This document shows, in pieces, positions 4,681 to 23,573 of a stretch of DNA of 28,011 nt. Source of the stretch: a virus; the IMG/VR virus record IMGVR_UViG_3300009431_000109, positions 1 through 28,011 of that record, one strand, 5' to 3'. Numbering within the stretch: position 1 is the first letter of the stretch; each line of letters opens with the position of its first letter. The notes beneath the pieces are model-generated. The model was not told the origin of the DNA and did no database searches. It worked only from the letters and a program-made list of their open reading frames with translations. The translations under genes and the position numbers were made by a program.

Positions 4681-6077
4681 CGCTCACCGTGTGCGTTGTG
4701 GGCCGGGAGGCGATCGCTCGCCCGGCGGAAGTTCGTCGCGGCGGCGTTCATCTCGCGGGCCGTCGAGAGGTCCAGGGCCCGTTTCTGGGCCGACACGTCG
4801 GCCTCGCCGGCGGCCAGGTCGGCGTCGACGTCGCCGAAGCCGAGCGCGTTCTTGGCCTCGGCGAGGTTCTCGTAGGCCGACCGGAGGAACGGGTTGACGC
4901 CGGCGGTGCGGTACTGGTAGCCGCGGCGGGTCATCGTCGCCCCGCGGCGGCCGAGGTCCGAGTCGTACTCAGCGATCTCGGCCGCGGCGCGGTACTCCTC
5001 GTTGGCCATGTAGTTCCGCCAGGCCGGGTCGGCCATCGCCACCTCGCGATTGAGGCGGGCGTAGTCGCGGCCCTGGGCCAGGCGGATCCGCCGGGTGTGC
5101 TCGGCCGGGGTCAAGCCGCCGGCGCCGCCCATCATCGCCTCGACGGCCGCGGTCTGGGTCGTGAACAACTGCGCCCGCAGCGCCGGGTCGGCCTGGACCA
5201 TTCCGAGGCGCGCCGTCGCGTCGGCGGTGCCGTAGAACCGCCGCATCGCGATCTGGCCGGCGGTCTCCTTCCTGCCGAAGGCCGCCGGGGCGATCGTGCG
5301 CTGTTCGCCGAGTCGGCCGGCGAGGGCCTGGAGGGCCGAGGCGCCCTGTTCGGTCTGGACGCCGGCCAGGAGGTACCCGAGGGAGGTCTCGCCGCCGATG
5401 CCCAGGGCGCCCATCTGGCGGACGGCCTTGTACCCGCCGCGGGAGATCTTGCGGCCGTGGCGGCCCTGGGCGCCCATCACGTAGGCGGCGATGTCGTGGA
5501 CGTCGCCGGCGGTCGTCCCCGGCAGGAGGGCCCCGAGGGTCCCGAGCGCCGTCCCGACGTCCTCGGCCTCGCCGCCGTAGTACCCGGCCTTCTTGGCGGA
5601 GATCGCCTGGCCGTAAAGGCTCTTGATCCGGCCGAACTCGGCGGCGGGGGCCGCCCCGCGGATCGCCGAGTACATCTGGGCGCCCTCTTGGGGGGCGAGC
5701 GTCGTGCCCTCCTGGAAGATCATCCCGCGGACGCGCCCGGCGACGCCGAGGTCCCCGGCCCCGGCGATCGCCTTGGTGATCGAAACGGTGGCCTTGGCGG
5801 TCTGGGCCTCGAGGCGCTTGGCCTCGGCGATCTGGGCGGTGATCGCCTTGGTCGCCACGCCGATCGCCGCGGCGACGCCGCCCCACTTGAGGACCATCGA
5901 CTTGAGGTCCTTCGTCGCTCGCTTGCCGGCCCGGCCCATCGCCCCGTCCTGGGCCTTGGTCGCCCGCGTGGCCTTGCCGGTGGCCTTGGTCACCTTGTTC
6001 TGGGCGTCGACGACCTTGAGAAACGCGCCGACGGCCTTGGCCGATTCGGCGTCGAGCTTGAAGTTTACCGTTCCCAT
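4677..6077 (-). CDS. Tape measure protein (466 aa)
   Basis: The rod that sets tail length and is ejected ahead of the DNA. It is mostly helical, with repeated Lys/Ala/Thr-rich segments near the N-terminus (QNKVTKATGKATRATKAQ), a hydrophobic stretch at about 65-80 (WGGVAAAIGVATKAI), and many Ala/Gly/Arg helices to the end. It is the largest helical protein in the tail module and follows the chaperone position. At 466 residues it is short for the type; at about 0.15 nm per residue the tail would be roughly 70 nm. GGAAA precedes the start at 6077. The stop overlaps the next gene as ATGA. Confidence 0.8.
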   Translation of the reverse strand: MGTVNFKLDAESAKAVGAFLKVVDAQNKVTKATGKATRATKAQDGAMGRAGKRATKDLKSMVLKWGGVAAAIGVATKAITAQIAEAKRLEAQTAKATVSITKAIAGAGDLGVAGRVRGMIFQEGTTLAPQEGAQMYSAIRGAAPAAEFGRIKSLYGQAISAKKAGYYGGEAEDVGTALGTLGALLPGTTAGDVHDIAAYVMGAQGRHGRKISRGGYKAVRQMGALGIGGETSLGYLLAGVQTEQGASALQALAGRLGEQRTIAPAAFGRKETAGQIAMRRFYGTADATARLGMVQADPALRAQLFTTQTAAVEAMMGGAGGLTPAEHTRRIRLAQGRDYARLNREVAMADPAWRNYMANEEYRAAAEIAEYDSDLGRRGATMTRRGYQYRTAGVNPFLRSAYENLAEAKNALGFGDVDADLAAGEADVSAQKRALDLSTAREMNAAATNFRRASDRLPAHNAHGER

Positions 6078-14548: not shown

Positions 14549-16702
14549 TCAGGCGGTCGACTGGACCATCCCGTCGCGGTCGGCGGCGGCCACGCCGTAG
14601 TCGAGGTACACGCGGAAGCCCTCGGCCAGGGTGTCGCCGGCCGCGGCGACCGGCTCGACGGTGGGCGTCTGGACCCCGTCGAGGAACCCGACGCGGATGT
14701 TGGCGCACTCGGCCGGGTTGGCGAACAGGTACCACGTCGTGGCGCTGGTCAGGCGCGGGTCGGTGAACGGGGCGATGGATCCGTCGCCGTAGCCGTGCTT
14801 GCCGTGCTGGGTCGCCGCGGCGGCCCCCACGCCGATGACGACGATGTCCGGGCTCGAGCAGATCGCCCGGGCGGTCCCGAGCAGGGCGATCGGGGCCAGG
14901 AGCGTCTTGGGCATCAGGTGACGCGGCTGGCTCTTGGAGTCCAGCTGGCCCATCATCAGGGTCGCCGCCGAGTCGACCGTCGCGATCGCCAGGGCGCTGG
15001 ATTCCTGGAGGGTCTCGGTGGCGGTGGCGAAGATCGCCGTCCCGTCGGCCATCGCGGCGTTAGCCTCGAGCAGGGTGTACACGACGGTCGAGACGTCGTT
15101 CATGGCCCCGAGGCCCAGGAGGCGCGGGGCGTCGGTCAGGATGTCGATCCGGTCGTCGATGATGTGCTGACGGCTGATGTACAACACCTTGCCGCGCGTG
15201 ACGCCGGTGATCTCCTCGCCGCTGTCGTCGAGGCTGACCGCCGAGAGCTTGCCGTCGTCGCCGACCTCGGTCAGGCCGCCGGCGATGTCGAGCTTGACCA
15301 TCTTCTCGGCCTGGAACCCGCGGAGGGGTCCGACCGAGCAGAACTGGCGCCACGTCTGCTGGGCCGACAGGGCGCCCTGGATGGACGTCACGCCGGCAAC
15401 GTTGGTGACGATGTTGGCCAGGGAGGCCGTGCCGATCCCGGCGCGGTACAGGTCGGAGCGGTTGTCGGGGATCGCCCGGCCCTCGAGGCGCAGGGCGTGG
15501 CGGAACACGTCCTCGAGGCGCAGGCCGCGGAGGGACCGCTCGGCGGTGTGGAGGGTCTGCTCGTCGTAGCCGCGAGTCATCGCGAAGTCGCCGGCGTTGG
15601 CGCGGATCAGGATCCCGGCCTCGACGGTGCGCCTCGCCGCCTCGTCGGCGGCCGGGGCCACGTGGACCGCCGGGAGGCCGGTGACGGGCGGGCGGGCGGC
15701 GCGGAGGACCTCGGCGAACCGGGCGCGGGCGGCGTCGAGGGTGACCGCCGGGTCGCCGATCGCCGCGTCGCGGGTCGCCTCGTCGACGCCGGCGATCCGG
15801 GCCAGCTCGGTGATCTCTCGGGCGCGGGCGGCCGCCGCGTCGGCATCGCGGGCGTCGAGGATGTCGTTGACGTCGTCGCGGGTCAGGGCGACCGGCGGGT
15901 CGGCCGGCGGGGCGGCGTCGGCCGTGGCGCGGGCCTCGGCGGCCTCGAAGTCGGCCGTCAGGGCGGTTCGCTGGTCGTCGGTGAGGTCGTCGGGGTCGAA
16001 ACCTCGGGCTCGGATGTAGTCGTTCAGGTTCATGGTGGCGGTGTCCTTTCGTTGGGGGGTCGCGGGGGCGGTGCGGTGGGTGGCGGTGTGGTGCGGCGGG
16101 CGATCGTCGTCCGCGCGGTTGGTCGCGTTGGGGTCGGCGCCGATCGGGCAGACGGAGTTTTCGTGGATCGTCCAGGACGTCGCGATTCGCAGCGGGCGGC
16201 CGTTGTCGGCGGCGGTGAACTTGCGCCCCTTGACCGTGGCGGTCTGGCCCGGGTCGATGTAGACGGCGCCCTCGACGCGGTAGCCGATCGAGTTGTCCGT
16301 CAGGTGGCCGCCCTGGATCAGGGACCATGCGGTCTCGCCTCGCTCGGTCTCGGCGAACGTGTTGACGCCGATCAGCTTGTCGCCCTCGACGCGGATCTCG
16401 CGGGTGGATCCGATCTGCTGGTCGATCGACCAGCGGCCGTGGGCGTCCAGGAGGGGGATCTGGCGCGAGTCGGGGATCTCGACGCCGGCCATCAGGAGGA
16501 TCTCGTCGACCCGCTCGTAGCGCGTCCAGTCGTAGACCGTTACCGGGGCCTCGGTGGCGATGACGGCCTCGACGGTGCGGGCCTCGACGTCGAGGCTCTC
16601 GGCGCGGGTGACGTAGGCGCGGACGGTGAGGCGATCGGCGTCGGTGGCCGCCGGCGGGGCGTTTCTCGTCTGGATCGGGCTCGGTCTATGCGGCGGCTGC
16701 AT
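14549..16702 (-). CDS. Prohead protease-major capsid protein fusion with internal start (717 aa)
   Basis: Residues about 25-200 are an HK97-type prohead protease (U35): His88 in LLDAHGRWS, Ser138 in HLTDNSIGYRV, and the conserved ENSVCPIGADPNA. Residues 224-390 are helical and charged, like a scaffold/delta domain. The rest is the capsid fold, ending with WYLFANPAECANIRVGFLDG and GFRVYLDYGVAA. Met224 (start at 16033) has the same CGAAAGGAC ribosome site used elsewhere, so a separate 494-residue scaffold-capsid protein is probably made in excess, with the full fusion as a minor product. Protease-capsid fusions are known in phages. The ATG at 16702 is served by GGAG inside the portal repeat. 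Confidence 0.88.
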   Translation of the reverse strand: MQPPHRPSPIQTRNAPPAATDADRLTVRAYVTRAESLDVEARTVEAVIATEAPVTVYDWTRYERVDEILLMAGVEIPDSRQIPLLDAHGRWSIDQQIGSTREIRVEGDKLIGVNTFAETERGETAWSLIQGGHLTDNSIGYRVEGAVYIDPGQTATVKGRKFTAADNGRPLRIATSWTIHENSVCPIGADPNATNRADDDRPPHHTATHRTAPATPQRKDTATMNLNDYIRARGFDPDDLTDDQRTALTADFEAAEARATADAAPPADPPVALTRDDVNDILDARDADAAAARAREITELARIAGVDEATRDAAIGDPAVTLDAARARFAEVLRAARPPVTGLPAVHVAPAADEAARRTVEAGILIRANAGDFAMTRGYDEQTLHTAERSLRGLRLEDVFRHALRLEGRAIPDNRSDLYRAGIGTASLANIVTNVAGVTSIQGALSAQQTWRQFCSVGPLRGFQAEKMVKLDIAGGLTEVGDDGKLSAVSLDDSGEEITGVTRGKVLYISRQHIIDDRIDILTDAPRLLGLGAMNDVSTVVYTLLEANAAMADGTAIFATATETLQESSALAIATVDSAATLMMGQLDSKSQPRHLMPKTLLAPIALLGTARAICSSPDIVVIGVGAAAATQHGKHGYGDGSIAPFTDPRLTSATTWYLFANPAECANIRVGFLDGVQTPTVEPVAAAGDTLAEGFRVYLDYGVAAADRDGMVQSTA
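16033..16052 (-). promoter_or_regulatory. Internal ribosome-binding site of the capsid part
   Basis: On the minus strand CGAAAGGAC lies about ten bases before an in-frame ATG at 16033 (Met224 of the fusion). The same motif precedes the genes starting at 8018, 14396, 18477 and 27614. The codons before it encode a His/Thr/Pro-rich linker, consistent with a domain border. Confidence 0.65.
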
Positions 16703-18248
16703 CGGTGGACTCCGTGGACTCGGTGGACTCGGTGGACTCGGCCGCGGTCTCGTCGGCGGCCTCGGCGGCGTTTTCCGCGGCGATCGCCGGGGCGGCGTCC
16801 TCGATCGTCAGGCCCTTGGTCGCCAGGTACTCGCGTTCCTCGGCGATCTGGTCGACCGCGCGGCGCCAGTCGAGGCCCTGGCGGGCGTACTCGCGCTTCA
16901 GCGTGGTCGTCAGGCTGTTGAGGCGGATCCGCTGGGCGTTGGCCTCCTTGGCCGGGTCGACGTGCTGGCGGCCGGGCCAGTACCACTCGGCCAGGATCCC
17001 GGCGCCGGGGCGCAGGATCGGACGGACGCGGGTGGTCAGGGCGTACTCGGCATACCAGGCGTCGAAAACGGCGTTGCAGTCGACGCGGCGGTCGGCCTGG
17101 CGGGTGGTGACGAAACGGTGGTAGCCCTGGTCGTCGAGGCGGCCCGAGGCGTAGTTGTGGTTGGACGAATCGGCCGCGGCGCGGTTGTACGGCATGTGAA
17201 ACGGCCGGGCGGCCTCGGCGATCTGTTCGTGCTTGAAGTCCTTGTACGTGGCGGTCGGCTGCTTGGCGTCGAACCCGGTGGCGCCGTAGCCGTAGGGGAT
17301 CGTCATGGCCGAGTCGTCGGGGATCTCGACCTCGTCGAAGTCGGCCTCGGCGTCCTCGACGTCGATCTCGGCGTTGTTGGCGTGGAGGAGGACGGAGATC
17401 GACGCGGCGCGACGTGCCGCCCGGACGGTGGCCAGGGTGTAGCCGCGCAGTTGCATCAGCGGGATCAGGCTGGCCGCCAGGCGCGGGATCCCGCGGATCT
17501 GGCCGGGGCGGTCGGGGTCGAAGATGTGGATCACCTTGTCGGCGGGGACCAGGTCGTAGGCGGCGGGGTTCGCCGCGCCGGTCGTGTCGCCGGGGTGGTT
17601 CTTGAGGATGTAGTATCCCGACGGGCGGCCGTCGTCGTCGAACCGGACCCCGTCGCGGACGGTCCGGTCGCCGTAGAGGGCCCAGGGCGAACAGACGCGA
17701 TCCGATTCGATCAGGCGGAGCCGGAGCGAGACGGCGCCGCGCGCCGCGTCGGGGTCGTTGACCAGGACGATGAACGCCTCGCCGGAGTGGCCGATCTGTT
17801 GCTCGGCCTGGCGGAGGATCTGCCCGAAGGTGCGCGACCCGTCGGCGTCGCACCGGGCGGACCAGTCGGCGAAGTCGTCCTCGATGCGCTGGGCCGTGGT
17901 CTCGGCGGGCCCCGAGATCTGCAACCGCGGGCCGGGGCCGACGACGTCGTTGGCCAGGGTGTCGACGATCCCCCGAGCGTAGCCGTTGTTGGCGTACTCG
18001 AACCGGCACCGCCGGCGGATGGTCGCCAGGTCGGCCCGGACGATCGCGTTGATGTCCAGGATCGAGGCGTCGGCGAAATGCGTGTCGGTGTAGCGATTGG
18101 ACGCCGCCGCGTCGTAATACGACCGGCCCTGGCCGCCGCGCTGGTTTGCGGGCTTGCGGACGATCTTGTTGACGATCGGGCGGGGGGCCTGGCCGCGGCC
18201 GACCAGGGCGTCGGCGACGCGTCGGAGGAGTCCGCGGCGGCGGGCCAT
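16686..18248 (-). CDS. Portal protein, lambda family (520 aa)
   Basis: The dodecameric vertex through which DNA enters and leaves the head. Length and sequence fit the lambda B-type portal family (PF05136): a basic N-terminus, NNGYARGIVDTLANDVVGPG near 90-110, the SGEAFIVL strand, DPDRPGQIRGIPRLAA in the middle and NYASGRLDDQGYHRF later. The C-terminus is low-complexity, Ala/Glu-rich with four EST repeats, encoded by a 9-bp tandem repeat. The gene overlaps the next one by 17 bases. Its place between the gpW and protease-capsid genes is standard. Confidence 0.92.
   Translation of the reverse strand: MARRRGLLRRVADALVGRGQAPRPIVNKIVRKPANQRGGQGRSYYDAAASNRYTDTHFADASILDINAIVRADLATIRRRCRFEYANNGYARGIVDTLANDVVGPGPRLQISGPAETTAQRIEDDFADWSARCDADGSRTFGQILRQAEQQIGHSGEAFIVLVNDPDAARGAVSLRLRLIESDRVCSPWALYGDRTVRDGVRFDDDGRPSGYYILKNHPGDTTGAANPAAYDLVPADKVIHIFDPDRPGQIRGIPRLAASLIPLMQLRGYTLATVRAARRAASISVLLHANNAEIDVEDAEADFDEVEIPDDSAMTIPYGYGATGFDAKQPTATYKDFKHEQIAEAARPFHMPYNRAAADSSNHNYASGRLDDQGYHRFVTTRQADRRVDCNAVFDAWYAEYALTTRVRPILRPGAGILAEWYWPGRQHVDPAKEANAQRIRLNSLTTTLKREYARQGLDWRRAVDQIAEEREYLATKGLTIEDAAPAIAAENAAEAADETAAESTESTESTESTDAAAA
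16704..16739. repeat. Four 9-bp tandem repeats (GGTGGACTC)
   Basis: Four units, three identical and one with C in place of the first G, encode Glu-Ser-Thr four times at the portal C-terminus. On the minus strand the variant base makes GGAG, eight bases before the ATG of the protease-capsid gene. Confidence 0.8.
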
Positions 18249-18454
18249 TAGCGGGCCCTCGACGACTTGAAGGTGTTGATCGCGAAGGCCCGGCCGGCGG
18301 AGCTGGTGTTCTGGCCGGCGTAGAGGCGGGCCAGGGCGTCGAGCATGTCGGCCCGGGACCCGTAGGCCACCGTCCGGCCGTTCTCGTCGGTGACCGACGT
18401 GGCGCCCACCTCCAGGGCGGCCTCGATCGCGGCGATGATCGTCGCGGTGCTCAT
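18248..18454 (-). CDS. gpW-like head-tail joining protein (68 aa)
   Basis: A small protein of the lambda gpW type, which closes the portal after packaging and prepares the head for tail attachment. Length (68 residues) and pattern fit: an N-terminal helix (IIAAIEAALEVGA), a short beta hairpin (SVTDENGRTVAYGS), and a second helix (RADMLDALARLYAGQ). A position immediately before the portal gene is typical. The stop overlaps the portal start as TAATG (18246-18250). Translation is probably coupled to the leader peptide upstream. Confidence 0.75.
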   Translation of the reverse strand: MSTATIIAAIEAALEVGATSVTDENGRTVAYGSRADMLDALARLYAGQNTSSAGRAFAINTFKSSRAR

Positions 18455-18477
18455 CGAATACGTCCGATCCAGGTCAT
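18451..18477 (-). CDS. Eight-residue leader peptide MTWIGRIR coupled to the gpW gene
   Basis: A short frame begins at the ATG at 18477, eight bases after the phage's usual ribosome site CGAAAGGACCG. It ends in TGA overlapping the gpW ATG as ATGA (18451-18454). The gpW start itself has only a weak ribosome site, so ribosomes probably load at the leader and reinitiate. The alternative is a long gpW frame starting at 18562, which has no ribosome site and would include the terminator. Confidence 0.5.
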   Translation of the reverse strand: MTWIGRIR

Positions 18478-18497: not shown

Positions 18498-18547
18498 AAA
18501 AAACGGCGGCCGGGCCTGGTGGAGTGGCGGCCCCGCCAGGCCCGGCC
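18498..18547 (-). terminator. Strong intrinsic terminator before the head operon
   Basis: Perfect 12-bp arms, GGCCGGGCCTGG (18508-18519) and CCAGGCCCGGCC (18536-18547). On the minus strand the hairpin is followed, after four bases, by six T (18503-18498). This should stop transcripts from the cassette. The head genes start only 21 bases beyond the T-run, so they need read-through, antitermination or a promoter not seen here. Confidence 0.75.
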
Positions 18548-18630
18548 TGTTCGATCCAGCATGATCTACCTACGTTTTTCGCGCGGGGAGACGGCCGGGG
18601 CAAGTGGAAAACGGCCCCCGCGCGGCAAGT

Positions 18631-18646
18631 GTGCTACATGTAGCAC
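18631..18646. promoter_or_regulatory. Perfect 16-bp palindrome GTGCTACATGTAGCAC
   Basis: A fully symmetric 16-base site with an AT-rich centre in GC-rich DNA, lying in the 275-base gap between the cassette and the head operon. Size and symmetry are those of a dimer-bound operator. Its protein is unknown. The rest of the gap holds further inverted repeats (for example CGCGCGGGG with CCCCGCGCG between 18583 and 18625) but no recognisable promoter. Confidence 0.5.
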
Positions 18647-18671
18647 GAAATCCGCCGTCGGGGCGGATTTC
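18647..18671. repeat. Inverted repeat GAAATCCGCC / GGCGGATTTC
   Basis: Ten-base perfect arms (18647-18656 and 18662-18671) around a five-base loop, directly beside the 16-bp palindrome. Neither strand has a T-run after it, so it is not a standard terminator. It may be a protein site or an RNA hairpin at the end of the cassette transcript. Confidence 0.5.
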
Positions 18672-18729
18672 GAGGGCGGAGGGGGTGGGGTGTAGAGGGT
18701 AGGAACGGCCGGAAACGGCCCGGATGGAC

Positions 18730-19314
18730 TCAGTTGATCGGTGGGATCGGCGTGGCGTACCCGGGCCAGTCGACGTACGCCATCAGCGCCTCGTCGGCTT
18801 TGGCGCGCTCGTATGCGGCGGTGATGTTCGTTCCGGCGGTTTCCCATGCCTTATTTGTGAACGCCTCGGGATCGCCACCGGCGGCCTGATGCCGGGTGGC
18901 GTGCGCCGAGTTGAAACGGATCACGCTGACGTGCGCATCGGCGAGCTTGGCGAGGGTGTCGGCCGACGCGTGCGCGGCGGCTAGGGCGGCAAGCCCGGCG
19001 GGGTAGGCGTCGGCCAGGAACGGGCCCCTTTGCCGGCACTCCACCGCGGCGAACGCGTTGACCCTCAGTTCCGCCAGGATCGCCCGGACGGCCTGGACGT
19101 CGCGGCGTTGCTCTCTCGCGGTCATTTCCTTCGCCTGGGTTTCCATGGTGTCGGCTTGGCGCCTCATCTGTCGGACGATGCAAAACGTCAGGACCACGTA
19201 AACGCCCGTGATCACGACCAGGGCGACCGTTGCCCAGGCCAAGACGGTGGCCGTCGCGCCGCCCGGATCGCAGGCGGCGGCTTCGGCGAGGAGGGTTGTC
19301 GTTTCCGCCAGCAT
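18730..19314 (-). CDS. Single-pass membrane protein of the lower-GC cassette (194 aa)
   Basis: Residues about 22-47 form one strongly hydrophobic helix (VLAWATVALVVITGVYVVL). A basic charged helix with coiled-coil character follows (QMRRQADTMETQAKEM), then a soluble Ala-rich C-terminal domain. This N-terminal layout is common in prophage- and bacterium-encoded membrane proteins of unknown role. GGGAG precedes the start at 19314. It is the last gene before the palindromes and terminator at 18498-18671. A function at the cell envelope, such as exclusion of other phages, would suit a cassette like this but is only a guess. Confidence 0.7.
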   Translation of the reverse strand: MLAETTTLLAEAAACDPGGATATVLAWATVALVVITGVYVVLTFCIVRQMRRQADTMETQAKEMTAREQRRDVQAVRAILAELRVNAFAAVECRQRGPFLADAYPAGLAALAAAHASADTLAKLADAHVSVIRFNSAHATRHQAAGGDPEAFTNKAWETAGTNITAAYERAKADEALMAYVDWPGYATPIPPIN

Positions 19315-19315
19315 G

Positions 19316-19684
19316 CTATGCTCCCGTTTCTGTGGCGGCGTCGTCGGTCGTGTCGTTCCGGCGCGTCGGCACCGGCGGGGCGAGGCGTTCGCGGATCCGC
19401 TTCGTGATGTCGGCGAGGATCGTTTGGGGCTGGCGGCCGACGGGCTGGAGCGCGGGTATGGAAGTGCCCATTCCCGCTCCGGACTTGTCGGGGTCCCCGA
19501 AGGCGTCTAGGCCCTGGATGGGGATCTTGATCGGGTAGAATTCGTTCCGGAGGTCCTTGACGACGAGTGTCCCGCCGTCGGGGTCGATCTCGTAGCGTTC
19601 GAACGGGGCCGCGGCGGGGTTCTTCTTGATCGCGGCGCGGATCTCGGCTTCGGCGTGGGCGACGTACTTGGCGTCGTAGTCCAT
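19316..19684 (-). CDS. Hypothetical protein of the lower-GC cassette (122 aa)
   Basis: I do not recognise this protein. The start at 19684 has a clear ribosome site (GGGAG). The N-terminal 25 residues are helical and charged (YVAHAEAEIRAAIKKN), followed by a beta-like part (RYEIDPDGGTLVVKD) and a Gly/Pro-rich loop. The C-terminus ends in a Thr/Asp-rich tail. It has no transmembrane segment and no Cys clusters. The stop lies one base from the next start, so the two are likely co-translated. Confidence 0.65.
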   Translation of the reverse strand: MDYDAKYVAHAEAEIRAAIKKNPAAAPFERYEIDPDGGTLVVKDLRNEFYPIKIPIQGLDAFGDPDKSGAGMGTSIPALQPVGRQPQTILADITKRIRERLAPPVPTRRNDTTDDAATETGA

Positions 19685-19702
19685 GGCGTTCTCCCAGGTT
19701 TT

Positions 19703-20119
19703 TCATGCCGTGTCTCCCTTCGTGAGTTCTTGGAGGTGGAACCCCATCGCCTCAAGGCCGCGTTCGCAGTCTCGATCCTGTTGCTTGAGGGAGCGGACCA
19801 AGATTCTCGCTCGCTGCGCAGCATCGTGTAACCCACCCCACGAATTGTCGCTTCGATCTGATGCGGCGGCCAAGGCTTGGCAAATACTGGTTGCTTCGTC
19901 TCGTTCCTCCCGCAGCCGCTCGATCTCCTCAGACGCCTGTGCGACCTGCAAATCCCTGTCCTCTACGGTCAGCTTCAGGACGGCGACCTCCTCGCAGAAC
20001 TCTGCAACGAGTGTTTTCAGACGCTCGATCTCCACGGCCTGTCGCTCTGCCAGGCCCTTCAATCGGACGTATTCCGCCCGCAAATCGTCGCCGGACAGAA
20101 TGGGTTGCTCGTCAGTCAT
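19703..20119 (-). CDS. Coiled-coil protein of the lower-GC cassette (138 aa)
   Basis: Residues about 10-85 are a long Glu/Leu/Arg-rich coiled coil (for example VEIERLKTLVAEFCEEV and EEIERLREERDEA). A second helical part follows, with several Cys, Gln and Asp. It has no catalytic motif I recognise. Two in-frame ATGs are close. The one at 20119 is preferred because AAAGGG lies eight bases upstream; the ATG at 20125 is only three bases from that site. Its GC content and third-position bias are clearly lower than in the phage core genes, suggesting different ancestry. It is the first gene after the candidate promoter at 20215-20244. Confidence 0.72.
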   Translation of the reverse strand: MTDEQPILSGDDLRAEYVRLKGLAERQAVEIERLKTLVAEFCEEVAVLKLTVEDRDLQVAQASEEIERLREERDEATSICQALAAASDRSDNSWGGLHDAAQRARILVRSLKQQDRDCERGLEAMGFHLQELTKGDTA

Positions 20120-20185
20120 CGCCATTTCCCTTTCTGCCCGCCCACCAGCGATCGCGGGCTGTCTGGTTAATTATCGCCGCCGAGC

Positions 20186-20200
20186 CAACACCCTGTGTTG
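20186..20200. promoter_or_regulatory. Operator-like dyad CAACAC-cct-GTGTTG
   Basis: A perfect inverted repeat with 6-bp arms and a 3-base centre, about 15 bases downstream of the candidate -10 box, so over or just past the start site. Such a position would suit a repressor operator. No repressor gene is identified in the window. Confidence 0.4.
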
Positions 20201-20214
20201 TCCCGGTCGCGGTC

Positions 20215-20244
20215 ATTCTACCGCCGGCGGCTGTGCCGGTGCAA
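20215..20244 (-). promoter_or_regulatory. Candidate sigma-70 promoter of the 20119-18730 cassette
   Basis: On the minus strand TTGCAC (20244-20239) and TAGAAT (20220-20215) are separated by 18 bases. TAGAAT matches TATAAT at five of six positions; the -35 box is weak, keeping only TTG. Transcription would start near 20208, about 90 bases before the coiled-coil gene, in a gap of about 170 bases. Few other sites in this GC-rich window fit this well. Confidence 0.5.
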
Positions 20245-20276
20245 GGGCGTTCAGGCCGTTTCCGCTACACCCGAAC

Positions 20277-20299
20277 CCCTACCCCCTATCCCTTATCCG
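20277..20299. repeat. ACCCCCTATCCC-type repeat at a gene end
   Basis: The plus strand reads CCCCTACCCCCTATCCCTTA across the stop codon of the zinc-ribbon gene. A 16-base core, CCCTACCCCCTATCCC, is identical at 67-82, where it again spans a stop codon. Confidence 0.6.
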
Positions 20300-20493
20300 T
20301 TGTCGATCGTTTCGCGGGTGCGGATCCGGCGGCCGCAGTGGCGGCAGACGCGGTAGCGGCGGACCTGGCCGGCCAGGGGGACCGTCGTGGCGGTCCGGAA
20401 CATCCTGCACCCGCATCGCGGGCATTTTAGCCCCCGACGGCCTCGCCGGCCGGCCGGGGGGTCCTCGGTCCGTTGTCGTTTCGCTTTCGCCAT
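20293..20493 (-). CDS. Small zinc-ribbon protein (66 aa)
   Basis: Two CxxC pairs are visible: CPRCG at about residue 24 and CRHCG at about 50, separated by an Arg-rich strand (RRYRVC) and followed by RRIRTRETI. This layout is that of NrdR-type or phage Com/Ogr-type zinc ribbons, which bind DNA or RNA. The basic N-terminus supports nucleic-acid binding. A GGAG lies about 12 bases before the ATG. The TAA stop falls inside an ACCCCCTATCCC-type repeat, so the extreme C-terminus is set by that repeat. As a lone ribbon ahead of the lower-GC cassette it could be a transcription factor; the target is unknown. Confidence 0.68.
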   Translation of the reverse strand: MAKAKRQRTEDPPAGRRGRRGLKCPRCGCRMFRTATTVPLAGQVRRYRVCRHCGRRIRTRETIDNG

Positions 20494-20558: not shown

Positions 20559-20993
20559 TCACGGTCTCGGGGTCGGGAAGTTTGTCATCCAGGACCACGA
20601 CGTCATCCGGTCGACGATCTTGGTCAGCGTCTCGATATGGGCCTGGAGGGCGGCGACCAGGCGGTCGTCGGGCGCGGCGATCGCCTCGAGGACCTCGCCC
20701 ACCTGGGGCGTCGGCGGGCCTATCACCGGACCGAGGGCGCCGAGGTGGTGGAGGTCGGCGGCGAGGGTCTCGGCCTGGGCCTGCGTGAGGACCACCGCGG
20801 CGGGAGTTTCCTCGCCATCGGACACGTTGACGAAGCCGGGGCGCTCGAGTCCCGCGGAACCCACGATAAGGGCCCGCGTCATGTCGTCGACGTCGGCTTC
20901 GTCGCGGGTGGATAGGATGTGGAGGCAGTAGCGCGACGGGTCGAACCGCTTGGAGGCCCGGACGTCGAGGCCGCTGGGGGCGTGGTTGCTCAT
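20559..20993 (-). CDS. Hypothetical protein of the packaging module (144 aa)
   Basis: I do not recognise this protein. The start at 20993 has a good ribosome site (AAAGGA) and overlaps the preceding stop as ATGA. A longer open frame continues upstream but is only the shadow of the kinase fusion. The first 60 residues look globular (CLHILSTRDEADVDD). A helical segment at about 68-90 (LTQAQAETLAADLHHLGAL) and another near 108-130 could form a coiled coil or dimer. It ends about 65 bases before the zinc-ribbon gene; that gap carries a short repeat. Confidence 0.65.
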   Translation of the reverse strand: MSNHAPSGLDVRASKRFDPSRYCLHILSTRDEADVDDMTRALIVGSAGLERPGFVNVSDGEETPAAVVLTQAQAETLAADLHHLGALGPVIGPPTPQVGEVLEAIAAPDDRLVAALQAHIETLTKIVDRMTSWSWMTNFPTPRP

Positions 20994-22156
20994 GATCGTT
21001 TTTCCTTTCGCTTGGCCGTCTTGGTCGCGGCCGTTTTCTTGGGTGCCGTTTTTCGTTTGGCGGTTTGTCGTTTGGCCGTTTTGGCCGCGGGGGTCTTGGC
21101 CGTCTTGCGGGTGCGTTTGGGGCGTTTGACCTTGCGGCGGAGGCGGGCGATCTCGTCGCCGGCCAGGCGGACCAGGTCGGCGTCGGTCAGGTGCGGGTCG
21201 TCGGTCAACGCCAGGGGCTCGATCACGTCCTCGATCGACCGGACGATCGCCGCGAGGTGCTCGGACTCGATCGCCCGCCGCTCGGCCGGCGTTGTTTGGG
21301 CCGGGCCGTCGCCGTCGGCGGCCGGATCGGCCCCGGCGGGGACCTCGCCCACCGGGCCGAGGCCGAGGAGGCGGTTTTTCTCGCGCTGGGCGGCCAGGGC
21401 GGTCTTGACGTCCTGGATCCGGAGGGACCGCGAGTACAGGTCGTCCAGGCGGGTGATCGACTCGCCGAGGGCCGCCGGGGCGCTGTACTCGGCGGCCCGG
21501 GCGATCCGCCGGTGGGCCTCGGCGATCGCCGCGGCGGCCGCCGGGCCGTCGAGGCCGAGCTTTTCGCCGGCGGTGGCCAGGATCCGCGACGGGCGGAGGC
21601 CCGAGACGATCAGGAGGACGATCTGGTCGACGGTCTGCTCGGCCGCGGCGGCCGCGTCGCCGGCGGCGGGCTCGGCGGGCCCGGCGGCGGGGGCCGCCGC
21701 GGCGCCGTCGGTCCGGACGATCTCGAGGGCGCCGGCCTCGGCGGCCGTCGGGGCCACCAGGTCGTCGAAGTACCGCGCGACGGCCCGCTCGGCGGCCCGG
21801 GGCTGGAGCGGGTGGCCCTTGCGGGCCCGGATCCGGGCGAGGCAGACGTCCGAGGGGGTCGGGACGTAGAGGATCCGCGTGGCGTACCCGGCGGCCCGGG
21901 CGGCGGCGAGGATCTTCTTGCGCTGGGCCTGGCGGGGGTTGGTCCGGTCGATCACGATCACCGGCGGTTTCTGGTCGCCGGCCAGGGCGGCCTTGACCGC
22001 GGCCAGGAACCCGCGGAAGTCCGACGGCGTCTCGGGGTCGTCGGGGCAAAGGATCGGGGCGCCGCCGTACCGGTCGGCGGCGAGGGTGCTCTTGCCGGAC
22101 CCGGGCGGGCCGACCAGGAGGACCATCTCGCGTTTTGTGGCCTGGGGGTCCGTCAT
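20990..22156 (-). CDS. P-loop polynucleotide-kinase-like domain fused to a small-terminase-like domain (388 aa)
   Basis: Three parts are visible. Residues 1-150 form a P-loop kinase: Walker A GPPGSGKST at 16-24, then VIVIDRTN (66-73) and a basic segment with RIRARKGHP, the pattern of AAA_33/T4-Pnk-like kinases that phosphorylate 5' hydroxyl ends. Residues about 174-266 resemble small terminase subunits: a helix-turn-helix-like segment (SGLRPSRILATAGEKLGL) and then long helices ending REKNRLLGL. Residues 341-388 are a Lys/Ala/Thr-rich histone H1-like tail, probably binding DNA. An Ala/Pro-rich linker (about 151-172) separates the first two. No other TerS candidate lies near TerL, which supports the assignment. 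The kinase activity and packaging role are inferences. Start and stop are both ATGA overlaps. Confidence 0.72.
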   Translation of the reverse strand: MTDPQATKREMVLLVGPPGSGKSTLAADRYGGAPILCPDDPETPSDFRGFLAAVKAALAGDQKPPVIVIDRTNPRQAQRKKILAAARAAGYATRILYVPTPSDVCLARIRARKGHPLQPRAAERAVARYFDDLVAPTAAEAGALEIVRTDGAAAAPAAGPAEPAAGDAAAAAEQTVDQIVLLIVSGLRPSRILATAGEKLGLDGPAAAAAIAEAHRRIARAAEYSAPAALGESITRLDDLYSRSLRIQDVKTALAAQREKNRLLGLGPVGEVPAGADPAADGDGPAQTTPAERRAIESEHLAAIVRSIEDVIEPLALTDDPHLTDADLVRLAGDEIARLRRKVKRPKRTRKTAKTPAAKTAKRQTAKRKTAPKKTAATKTAKRKEKRS

Positions 22157-22776
22157 TTCGTCAGCGCCTCCTCCATCCAGTCGCGGTGGAATCGGTAAAG
22201 GCCCGCGTCGCGGGTGATCACGTAGTTCTCAAGGCGGGGGTTGCCGGTCAGGTTGGCCGATCCCTCGACGCAGATCCCGCCGTCGGGCGTGGCCAGGAGG
22301 AGGACCTTTGCGTGGTTCAGGAAGGCGCGGTAGCGGCCGCCGCGGGCCCGGATCCCGTCGAGGAGGAGGGCGTAACTGGCCGTCTCGCGGCGCTTGAAGT
22401 AAAGGCCGGTCAGGATGTCGACGGTCCCGATCCGGCCGGTGTCCCACAACTCCAGGAGGTCCACGACGTTCGGCCGCGATGTCGTCCACGTCGAGCACGA
22501 CAAGCGGTCGGTGCGGCCGATCCAGTCCAGCAACACCGGGACCCACGTCCAGAAATCGAACGTCCCCGGGCCGATCAGGTGGACCGATTCGCCGATCGCC
22601 GGCGGGCCGTCCATCACGTCGCCGAGGGCCTGTTTCTGGCGGAAGCGGATAAACCGCCGGCGGGCCTCGGCGCGGCGGAACCGGGCGGCGGCGGGCATGT
22701 GCTCGGTCTCGAGCGGGTCGACCGCGTCCTGGCCGCCCAGGATGTCGTCGATCAGGTAGTCGTCGCCGGCGGTCAT
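22153..22776 (-). CDS. Phospholipase D-like protein with one HKD-type motif (207 aa)
   Basis: The C-terminal half contains one PLD-superfamily motif: His155 and Lys157 in NHAKVLL, followed by EGSANLTGNPRLENY (171-185), the typical GS-N-x-N companion. Family members hydrolyse phosphodiester bonds, often as dimers when only one motif is present, and include small nucleases. Residues about 85-130 look like an alpha/beta half-domain. The N-terminal 60 residues are charged and helical. It starts at 22776 in an ATGA overlap with the methyltransferase and ends in an ATGA overlap with the kinase fusion, so it belongs to the packaging/DNA module. A nuclease acting on packaged or host DNA is a reasonable guess; the substrate is unknown. 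Confidence 0.78.
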   Translation of the reverse strand: MTAGDDYLIDDILGGQDAVDPLETEHMPAAARFRRAEARRRFIRFRQKQALGDVMDGPPAIGESVHLIGPGTFDFWTWVPVLLDWIGRTDRLSCSTWTTSRPNVVDLLELWDTGRIGTVDILTGLYFKRRETASYALLLDGIRARGGRYRAFLNHAKVLLLATPDGGICVEGSANLTGNPRLENYVITRDAGLYRFHRDWMEEALTK

Positions 22777-23573
22777 TCGTCGGCCTCCTGGGGCGGGAAC
22801 AAGGGGCGGGGGACGGTGTCGAGCCGGCGGGCGGCGGTCTCGGCGTTTGCGGGGACGGACTCGACGGCGATGTAGCGGTACCCGGCGGCCTTGGCCGCGA
22901 CGGCCGTCGTCCCGGATCCGGCGAACGGGTCGAGGATGATCCCGCCGGGCGGGGTGATCCGGACCAGGTCCCGCATCAGCGCCGTCGGTTTGCCGGTCAT
23001 GTGGTGCTTGTCGGCCTGGGTGACGCGGTGCGAGAACATGCCGGGCAGGCATGGCGCATCGGCGGGCGGCGCGGGCATGGGGCCGGCCGATCCCCAGACG
23101 ACGTACTCGCACTGGTTGCGGAATCGGGCTTTCGCGGGCCGGGTCGAGAGGGTCTTGTCCCAGGGGACGATCCCACGCCATATCCACCCGCCGGCCTGGA
23201 GCGCGTCGGTGGTGATGGGGAGCTGTCGCCAGTCGGTGAACATGCACAACGGGGCCCCCGGGACGGCGGCCCGGAGGCATTGGGCAAGCCAGAGCGCCGA
23301 CCAGTACCCATACGCGCGCTGGTCGCGGTTGTCGCCCGTGAACTGGGCGTACTGGCGGAGCGTGGACGTCATGACGTACTTCTCGTTTGTGCGTTGCATC
23401 CGATCGGAACGGAAGGCCCCGCCGGACGAATACGGGGGGTCCGTAATGACGGCCCCGATCGACGCGGCGGGGATCATCGGCAGGATCGCCAGGGCGTCGC
23501 CGGTCAGGATGCAGCCGTCGGAGCGAGCATCGAGTACTTCGTCGATTGCGTGTCGGGTCTCGGCGTCGGTCAT
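22773..23573 (-). CDS. DNA (adenine-N6 or cytosine-N4) methyltransferase, beta class (266 aa)
   Basis: An S-adenosylmethionine-dependent DNA methyltransferase of the N4/N6 family (PF01555-like). The catalytic motif IV is TDPPY at residues 44-48 and the AdoMet-binding motif I is FAGSGTT at 217-223. This order, with the target-recognition region between, defines the beta class. The start at 23573 overlaps the TerL stop as ATGA. No restriction endonuclease is adjacent, so it is probably an orphan enzyme that marks phage DNA against host restriction or influences packaging; that role is inferred. Near its N-terminus it carries RSDGCILTGD, also found in the second methyltransferase of this window (3572-4312), with nearly identical DNA. 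The recognition sequence cannot be predicted. Confidence 0.9.
   Translation of the reverse strand: MTDAETRHAIDEVLDARSDGCILTGDALAILPMIPAASIGAVITDPPYSSGGAFRSDRMQRTNEKYVMTSTLRQYAQFTGDNRDQRAYGYWSALWLAQCLRAAVPGAPLCMFTDWRQLPITTDALQAGGWIWRGIVPWDKTLSTRPAKARFRNQCEYVVWGSAGPMPAPPADAPCLPGMFSHRVTQADKHHMTGKPTALMRDLVRITPPGGIILDPFAGSGTTAVAAKAAGYRYIAVESVPANAETAARRLDTVPRPLFPPQEADE

What the first reader, a model, noticed from the sequence alone, without database searches (positions are those of the whole stretch)
18498..20244. Self-contained three-gene cassette with its own promoter, operator dyad and terminator (moron-like)
Seen: a TTGCAC-18-TAGAAT promoter candidate, an adjacent CAACAC/GTGTTG dyad, three unknown genes of visibly lower GC and weaker codon bias, then a 12-bp hairpin with six T. 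Established: morons are autonomous phage cassettes with this plan and often serve host fitness or exclusion. Inference: the coiled-coil, soluble and membrane proteins form one accessory system, possibly envelope-linked defence.
Basis: partly seen in the sequence, partly recalled or inferred. Interest (0 to 1): 0.7.

Follow-up and report, generated by a model that had tools for sequence, protein, structure and literature searches.

The report
Accessory gene cassette at phage hotspot
Three unknown phage genes form a small piece of accessory cargo at a spot where related phages either have nothing or carry unrelated genes, several of them toxin- or defence-like; the 'operator' and 'terminator' that matter belong to the phage core, not to the cargo.

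Summary
The three genes (18730-20125, minus strand) are real and form one tight operon with no detectable homologues outside two contigs of the same virus. They are accessory cargo. In the nearest relative (L086, portal 54% identical) and in most of about 88 relatives, the flanking genes (an NrdR-type zinc-ribbon gene and gpW/portal) are separated by a short spacer. In 17 loci, counting this one, 0.2-2 kb of mostly unrelated, lower-GC cargo sits there: AbiEii, PIN, DUF6932 nucleotidyltransferase with HTH, Beta protein with sce7726, NucS-like nuclease. The promoter (8/12) is near chance level; the CAACAC dyad is chance-level; the hairpin is real but core, since relatives without the cassette have it. 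A different, much stronger palindrome (18631-18646) marks the far edge of the insertion. It is conserved in about 75 loci, resembles an NrdR box, and co-varies with the zinc-ribbon protein, which probably binds it. The conserved hairpin can form two competing stems. A defence or exclusion role for this cassette is inferred only from what relatives carry at the same site.

The parts
19703..20125 (-). cc140: 140-aa acidic coiled-coil protein, first cassette gene
   Evidence: ORF; only weak coiled-coil-type hits to Pfam/NCBIfam; GC3 0.69
19316..19684 (-). sol122: 122-aa soluble protein, second gene
   Evidence: ORF; no usable family hit; single-sequence model too poor to use
18730..19314 (-). mem194: one TM helix near the N terminus (about residues 24-47), then a long helix and a helical C-terminal part; N-out/C-in by charge (inference)
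   Evidence: hydropathy; model helix 20-70 fairly confident, rest not
20126..20292 (-). 167-bp spacer with weak promoter candidate (20215-20244) and chance-level dyad (20186-20200)
20293..20493 (-). Core gene: 66-aa NrdR-type zinc-ribbon protein, upstream edge of the hot spot
   Evidence: conserved in about 100 loci; 15 of 18 aligned members hit PF22811 NrdR Zn ribbon; solved NrdR at E 0.002 with the family profile
18631..18646 (.). Conserved palindromic operator GTGCTACATGTAGCAC, downstream edge of the hot spot
18646..18672 (-). 11-bp perfect hairpin next to the operator, meaning unknown
18498..18547 (-). Core hairpin with T6: terminator-like element able to form two competing stems
18451..18477 (-). 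Possible 8-aa leader ORF MTWIGRIR* whose stop overlaps the gpW start (ATGA)
   Evidence: sequence; inference
18248..18454 (-). gpW-like head-tail adaptor (core)
   Evidence: phrog_2545, E 8.5e-8
16686..18248 (-). Portal, lambda family (core)
   Evidence: PF05136, E 4.5e-65

Best explanation
The three genes are one accessory operon (cargo) inserted in a temperate-type phage between a conserved NrdR-type zinc-ribbon gene and that protein's probable operator, just upstream of the head genes. Shown by comparison: the site is a hot spot, empty in most relatives and filled with other, lower-GC genes in 17 loci; in nearly all of those the cargo lies between the zinc-ribbon stop codon and the operator, leaving operator, hairpin terminator and gpW together as a core block. 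Inferred: the zinc-ribbon protein binds the palindrome as a dimer and controls passage from packaging to head genes, with the two-state hairpin as a transcription gate. The cargo, transcribed by read-through or from a weak promoter of its own, would stop at the core hairpin and so be tolerated without disturbing the head genes. For the products the most likely role is a lysogen-borne conflict system (exclusion or abortive infection), with the single-span membrane protein as effector and the two soluble proteins as partners or sensors; I give that part about 0.35. The confidence below is for the accessory-cargo reading.
For: Absence of all three proteins from every fetched relative except two contigs of the same virus. 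Empty site in L086: zinc ribbon 5346-5555, 224-nt gap, gpW 5780; operator-to-gpW DNA homologous to the window (alignment score 52, shuffled maximum 36). Operator motif: EM log-likelihood 307 against 49-57 for shuffled sets; 76 of 88 loci at or above score 6 against 2-11 shuffled. Of 75 operator loci, 52 have it within 60 nt of the zinc-ribbon stop, 17 beyond 200 nt because cargo intervenes, and only two have cargo after it. Operator sequence tracks the zinc-ribbon protein (partial Mantel 0.58 given portal, 0.62 given TerL; TerL given zinc ribbon -0.15), also in cargo loci where the two are 0.2-2 kb apart (3.2 mismatches of 16, against 6.0 by portal kinship). Cargo GC is below flanks in 15 of 16 loci. 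Cargo families: AbiEii 2e-110, Beta + sce7726, DUF6932, PIN_3, NucS. Hairpin + T run in 16 of 76 loci against 0.65 expected. Integrase in the window.
Against: No homologue or usable structure for any cassette protein, so no direct functional evidence. Not all cargo in relatives is defence-like (HNH, unknowns). The motif model was trained on the loci it scores. Zinc-ribbon gene and operator are linked, so co-variation could partly be co-inheritance. The palindrome might instead be a packaging (cos) site: the P2 and P4 hot spots lie beside cos (PMC9122126). The two-stem alignment was partly chosen for the inner stem.
Confidence: 0.8

Rival explanations
1. Classical autonomous moron exactly as first read: own promoter, operator and terminator, expressed in the lysogen independently of phage late transcription.
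For: 167-bp spacer of somewhat lower GC with a TTGCAC/TAGAAT site; hairpin + T6 at the far end.
Against: Promoter 8/12 with P about 0.08; dyad P about 0.30; hairpin and operator present in relatives without the cassette.
Confidence: 0.25
2. Lineage-specific core genes for virion assembly or packaging in the late operon, diverged beyond recognition rather than inserted.
For: Same strand and operon as packaging and head genes; proteins identical in two other metagenome contigs.
Against: Nearest relative has the same flanking gene order with a 224-nt gap and no counterpart; other relatives hold unrelated genes there; deviant composition.
Confidence: 0.1
3. A lysis cassette: mem194 as holin or spanin-like protein with two partners.
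For: One TM helix; weak Phage_holin_3_6 match, E 0.008, below cut-off; no lysis gene recognised among the window proteins searched.
Against: Charge distribution puts the long C-terminal part in the cytoplasm, unlike a spanin; no endolysin beside it; match below the curated cut-off.
Confidence: 0.08
4. The palindrome at the cassette edge is the cos or terminase recognition site rather than an operator; the hot spot is simply cos-proximal as in P2/P4.
For: P2/P4 defence hot spots lie next to cos (in P2 between gpA and portal; PMC9122126); the site sits between packaging and portal genes; symmetry suits a dimeric nuclease.
Against: Its sequence tracks the zinc-ribbon protein and not TerL; its shape resembles an NrdR box, which this zinc-ribbon type binds.
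Confidence: 0.2

Closest known systems
[quoted passage not shown] 2022, PMC9122126)
   Same: Small (1-5 kb) high-turnover locus between conserved phage genes next to packaging and portal functions, with Abi/TA/defence genes in many members.
   Different: Different phage group (lambda-type TerL and portal, protease-capsid fusion); bounded by a zinc-ribbon gene and its putative operator; often empty; this cassette has no known defence gene.
Lambdoid morons
   Same: Extra operon inserted between core genes, lower GC, absent from relatives.
   Different: No convincing promoter of its own; the terminator is a core element, not brought in with the genes.
NrdR repressor and NrdR boxes (PMC12051234)
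   Same: Zinc ribbon of the same type and a 16-bp palindrome with the C-N-A-y-A-T-r-T-N-G core (NrdR consensus letters recalled from memory).
   Different: Phage proteins lack the ATP-cone; a single box in the window instead of a phased pair; different outer bases; no ribonucleotide reductase target nearby.

Membership tests
Moron (phage accessory cassette) | Inserted between genes that are adjacent in relatives; absent there | tested here: met
   L086 empty site, no homologues in any fetched relative
Moron (phage accessory cassette) | Base composition unlike the core | tested here: met
   GC 59.6-68.2%; cc140 an outlier, the other two borderline; cargo GC below flanks in 15 of 16 loci
Moron (phage accessory cassette) | Own promoter | tested here: inconclusive
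   8/12 site, chance 7.6% per shuffled spacer
Moron (phage accessory cassette) | Own terminator | tested here: not met
   Hairpin lies in core DNA and occurs in relatives without the cassette
Moron (phage accessory cassette) | Expressed in the lysogen or benefits the host | not testable with these tools
   No transcriptome or host available
Phage defence hot spot | 1-5 kb variable locus between two conserved phage genes, high turnover | tested here: met
   17 filled loci with mostly unrelated cargo, most others empty; some fillings are under 1 kb
Phage defence hot spot | Contains anti-phage systems | tested here: inconclusive
   By family, yes in several relatives; no hit for this cassette beyond a weak coiled-coil match
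NrdR | NrdR-type zinc ribbon | tested here: met
   PF22811 in 15 of 18 aligned members, best 3e-11; the window protein alone only 0.0016, below cut-off
NrdR | ATP-cone nucleotide-binding domain | tested here: not met
   66 aa, zinc ribbon only
NrdR | Phased pair of 16-bp boxes at ribonucleotide reductase genes | tested here: not met
   One box in the window, at the head operon

The most novel reading that the evidence does not exclude
A large group of uncultivated phages uses an NrdR-derived mini-regulator, a lone zinc ribbon with a co-evolving 16-bp operator and a two-state terminator, at the packaging/head boundary. The gap between regulator gene and operator is a protected slot for conflict genes, and this window's slot holds a new three-gene, membrane-linked exclusion system.
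Probability: 0.25. Interest if true: 0.78.

Novelty: new variant of a known kind. Interest (0 to 1): 0.6.

Why it matters
The cassette alone is an anonymous accessory operon. The comparison it prompted yields two testable things: a phage hot spot that can be searched for new defence systems by anchor genes in uncultivated phages, and a compact regulator-operator-terminator module (NrdR-type zinc ribbon without nucleotide sensing) for which I found no description in Rfam or in the papers searched. Binding can be tested with one protein and one short DNA.

Tried and rejected
Pfam, PHROGs, NCBIfam and PADLOC for all three proteins, and PDB sequence, phage and plasmid tblastn for mem194 and sol122: nothing usable. 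Single-sequence AlphaFold models of sol122 and mem194: too poor for fold search, so none was run. Two genome-contig scans found no relative, so the host is unknown; relatives cannot be drawn for a virus record. TerL single-protein scan found nothing. Spanin hit for sol122 (E 0.37) and DruC hit for cc140 (E 0.005, coiled coil) rejected as chance or low complexity. Rfam: no match in the window or at the hairpin element.

Full report
What is in the window. The record is a 28-kb IMG/VR virus contig, about 71% GC. It holds an integrase, a lambda-type TerL, a TerS-like protein (by sequence pattern, my reading) with an AAA_33 kinase-like domain, a short zinc-ribbon gene, the three genes of the finding, gpW, a lambda-family portal, a protease-capsid fusion and tail genes, all on the minus strand. 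The three ORFs have coding-like composition and 18-nt and 1-nt gaps, so they are very likely one operon.

The promoter is an 8/12 match that the consensus scan does not accept and that shuffled spacers reproduce 7.6% of the time; the dyad is reproduced in 30% of shuffles. The hairpin with six T is far beyond chance, but see below for whose it is.

Cargo, not core. Searches for relatives by capsid and portal gave about 155 further loci. None encodes any of the three proteins except two contigs of the same virus at 99.9% or more. In contrast the zinc-ribbon gene is conserved in about 100. The closest relative, L086, keeps the order TerS-like gene, 100-aa ORF, zinc ribbon, gpW, portal with only 224 nt between zinc ribbon and gpW: an empty site.

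The edge of the insertion. Perfect palindromes turned up in that gap in several relatives (the total count of any palindrome was no more than expected, but the sequences were alike). A strict pattern taken from them found 13 in 89 loci against 0.4 expected. A palindromic EM model then found gTTCtAyATrTaGAAc, including the window's GTGCTACATGTAGCAC form, in 76 of 88 loci, log-likelihood 307 against about 50 for shuffled sets. In empty loci it lies within 60 nt of, or overlaps, the zinc-ribbon stop codon (52 of 75); in 17 loci it is more than 200 nt away because cargo lies between, and in two the cargo is on the other side. The window has one good site, 184 nt before gpW, the same distance as in L086. 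The L003 contig stands in for the window in these counts.

Who binds it. The zinc-ribbon proteins are NrdR-type and the site has the shape of an NrdR box, each half of which binds one NrdR zinc ribbon (PMC12051234; consensus letters from memory). Operator sequence follows zinc-ribbon sequence and not portal or TerL sequence, also where cargo separates the two. Linkage is the main caveat.

The hairpin. Hairpin plus T run recurs 121-190 nt after the operator in 16 of 76 loci against 0.65 expected, including loci without cargo. In most of them the left strand is complementary to two successive right strands at fixed spacing; both pairings show compensatory changes in all five inner pairs. The set was partly chosen for the inner stem, so this is suggestive. 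It is not in Rfam. In the window the hairpin therefore belongs to the gpW leader.

What sits in the slot elsewhere. AbiEii (L152), DUF6932 nucleotidyltransferase with HTH (L030), Beta protein with sce7726 (L040), M78-like peptidase with a second ORF (L142), PIN_3 (L154), NucS-like nucleases (L017, L027), SDH-type protease (L069), HNH (L090/L091) and unknowns. Cargo is AT-richer than flanks in 15 of 16 loci. This is the behaviour of the P2/P4 antiviral hot spots.

What the cassette does. No direct evidence. One membrane protein with a probably cytoplasmic helical part and two soluble partners, in a slot favoured by conflict genes, make exclusion or abortive infection the leading guess (about 0.35); other lysogenic-conversion functions share the rest.

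Limits. Host unknown; relatives are metagenomic fragments; duplicates were removed only when sequences near the site were identical; annotations of relatives' cargo are by profile only.

Noticed in passing
window 18498-18547 and leaders of about 13 relatives: Hairpin with layout S4-T5-G[GAT]GC-T'5-N3-T''5-S'4-Tn in which T can pair with T' or T''; both stems co-vary; not in Rfam.
   Followed up: partly
window 20990-22156 (-): AAA_33 kinase-like domain fused to a TerS-like C-terminal part; L086 has the TerS-like part apparently without the kinase domain.
   Followed up: no
window 22153-23570 (-): DNA methyltransferase next to an endonuclease-like gene between TerL and the TerS-like gene: possible phage restriction-modification pair.
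   Followed up: no
window 18451-18477 (-): 8-aa ORF MTWIGRIR with a good Shine-Dalgarno site, stop overlapping the gpW start codon.
   Followed up: no
L040:2350-2413 (-): Type II hammerhead ribozyme in a phage contig (Rfam RF02276).
   Followed up: no
L154:4240-4311 (+): tRNA gene overlapping the 65-aa ORF between hot spot and portal.
   Followed up: no
window 14549-16702 (-): Head protease and major capsid protein fused in one 717-aa protein.
   Followed up: partly
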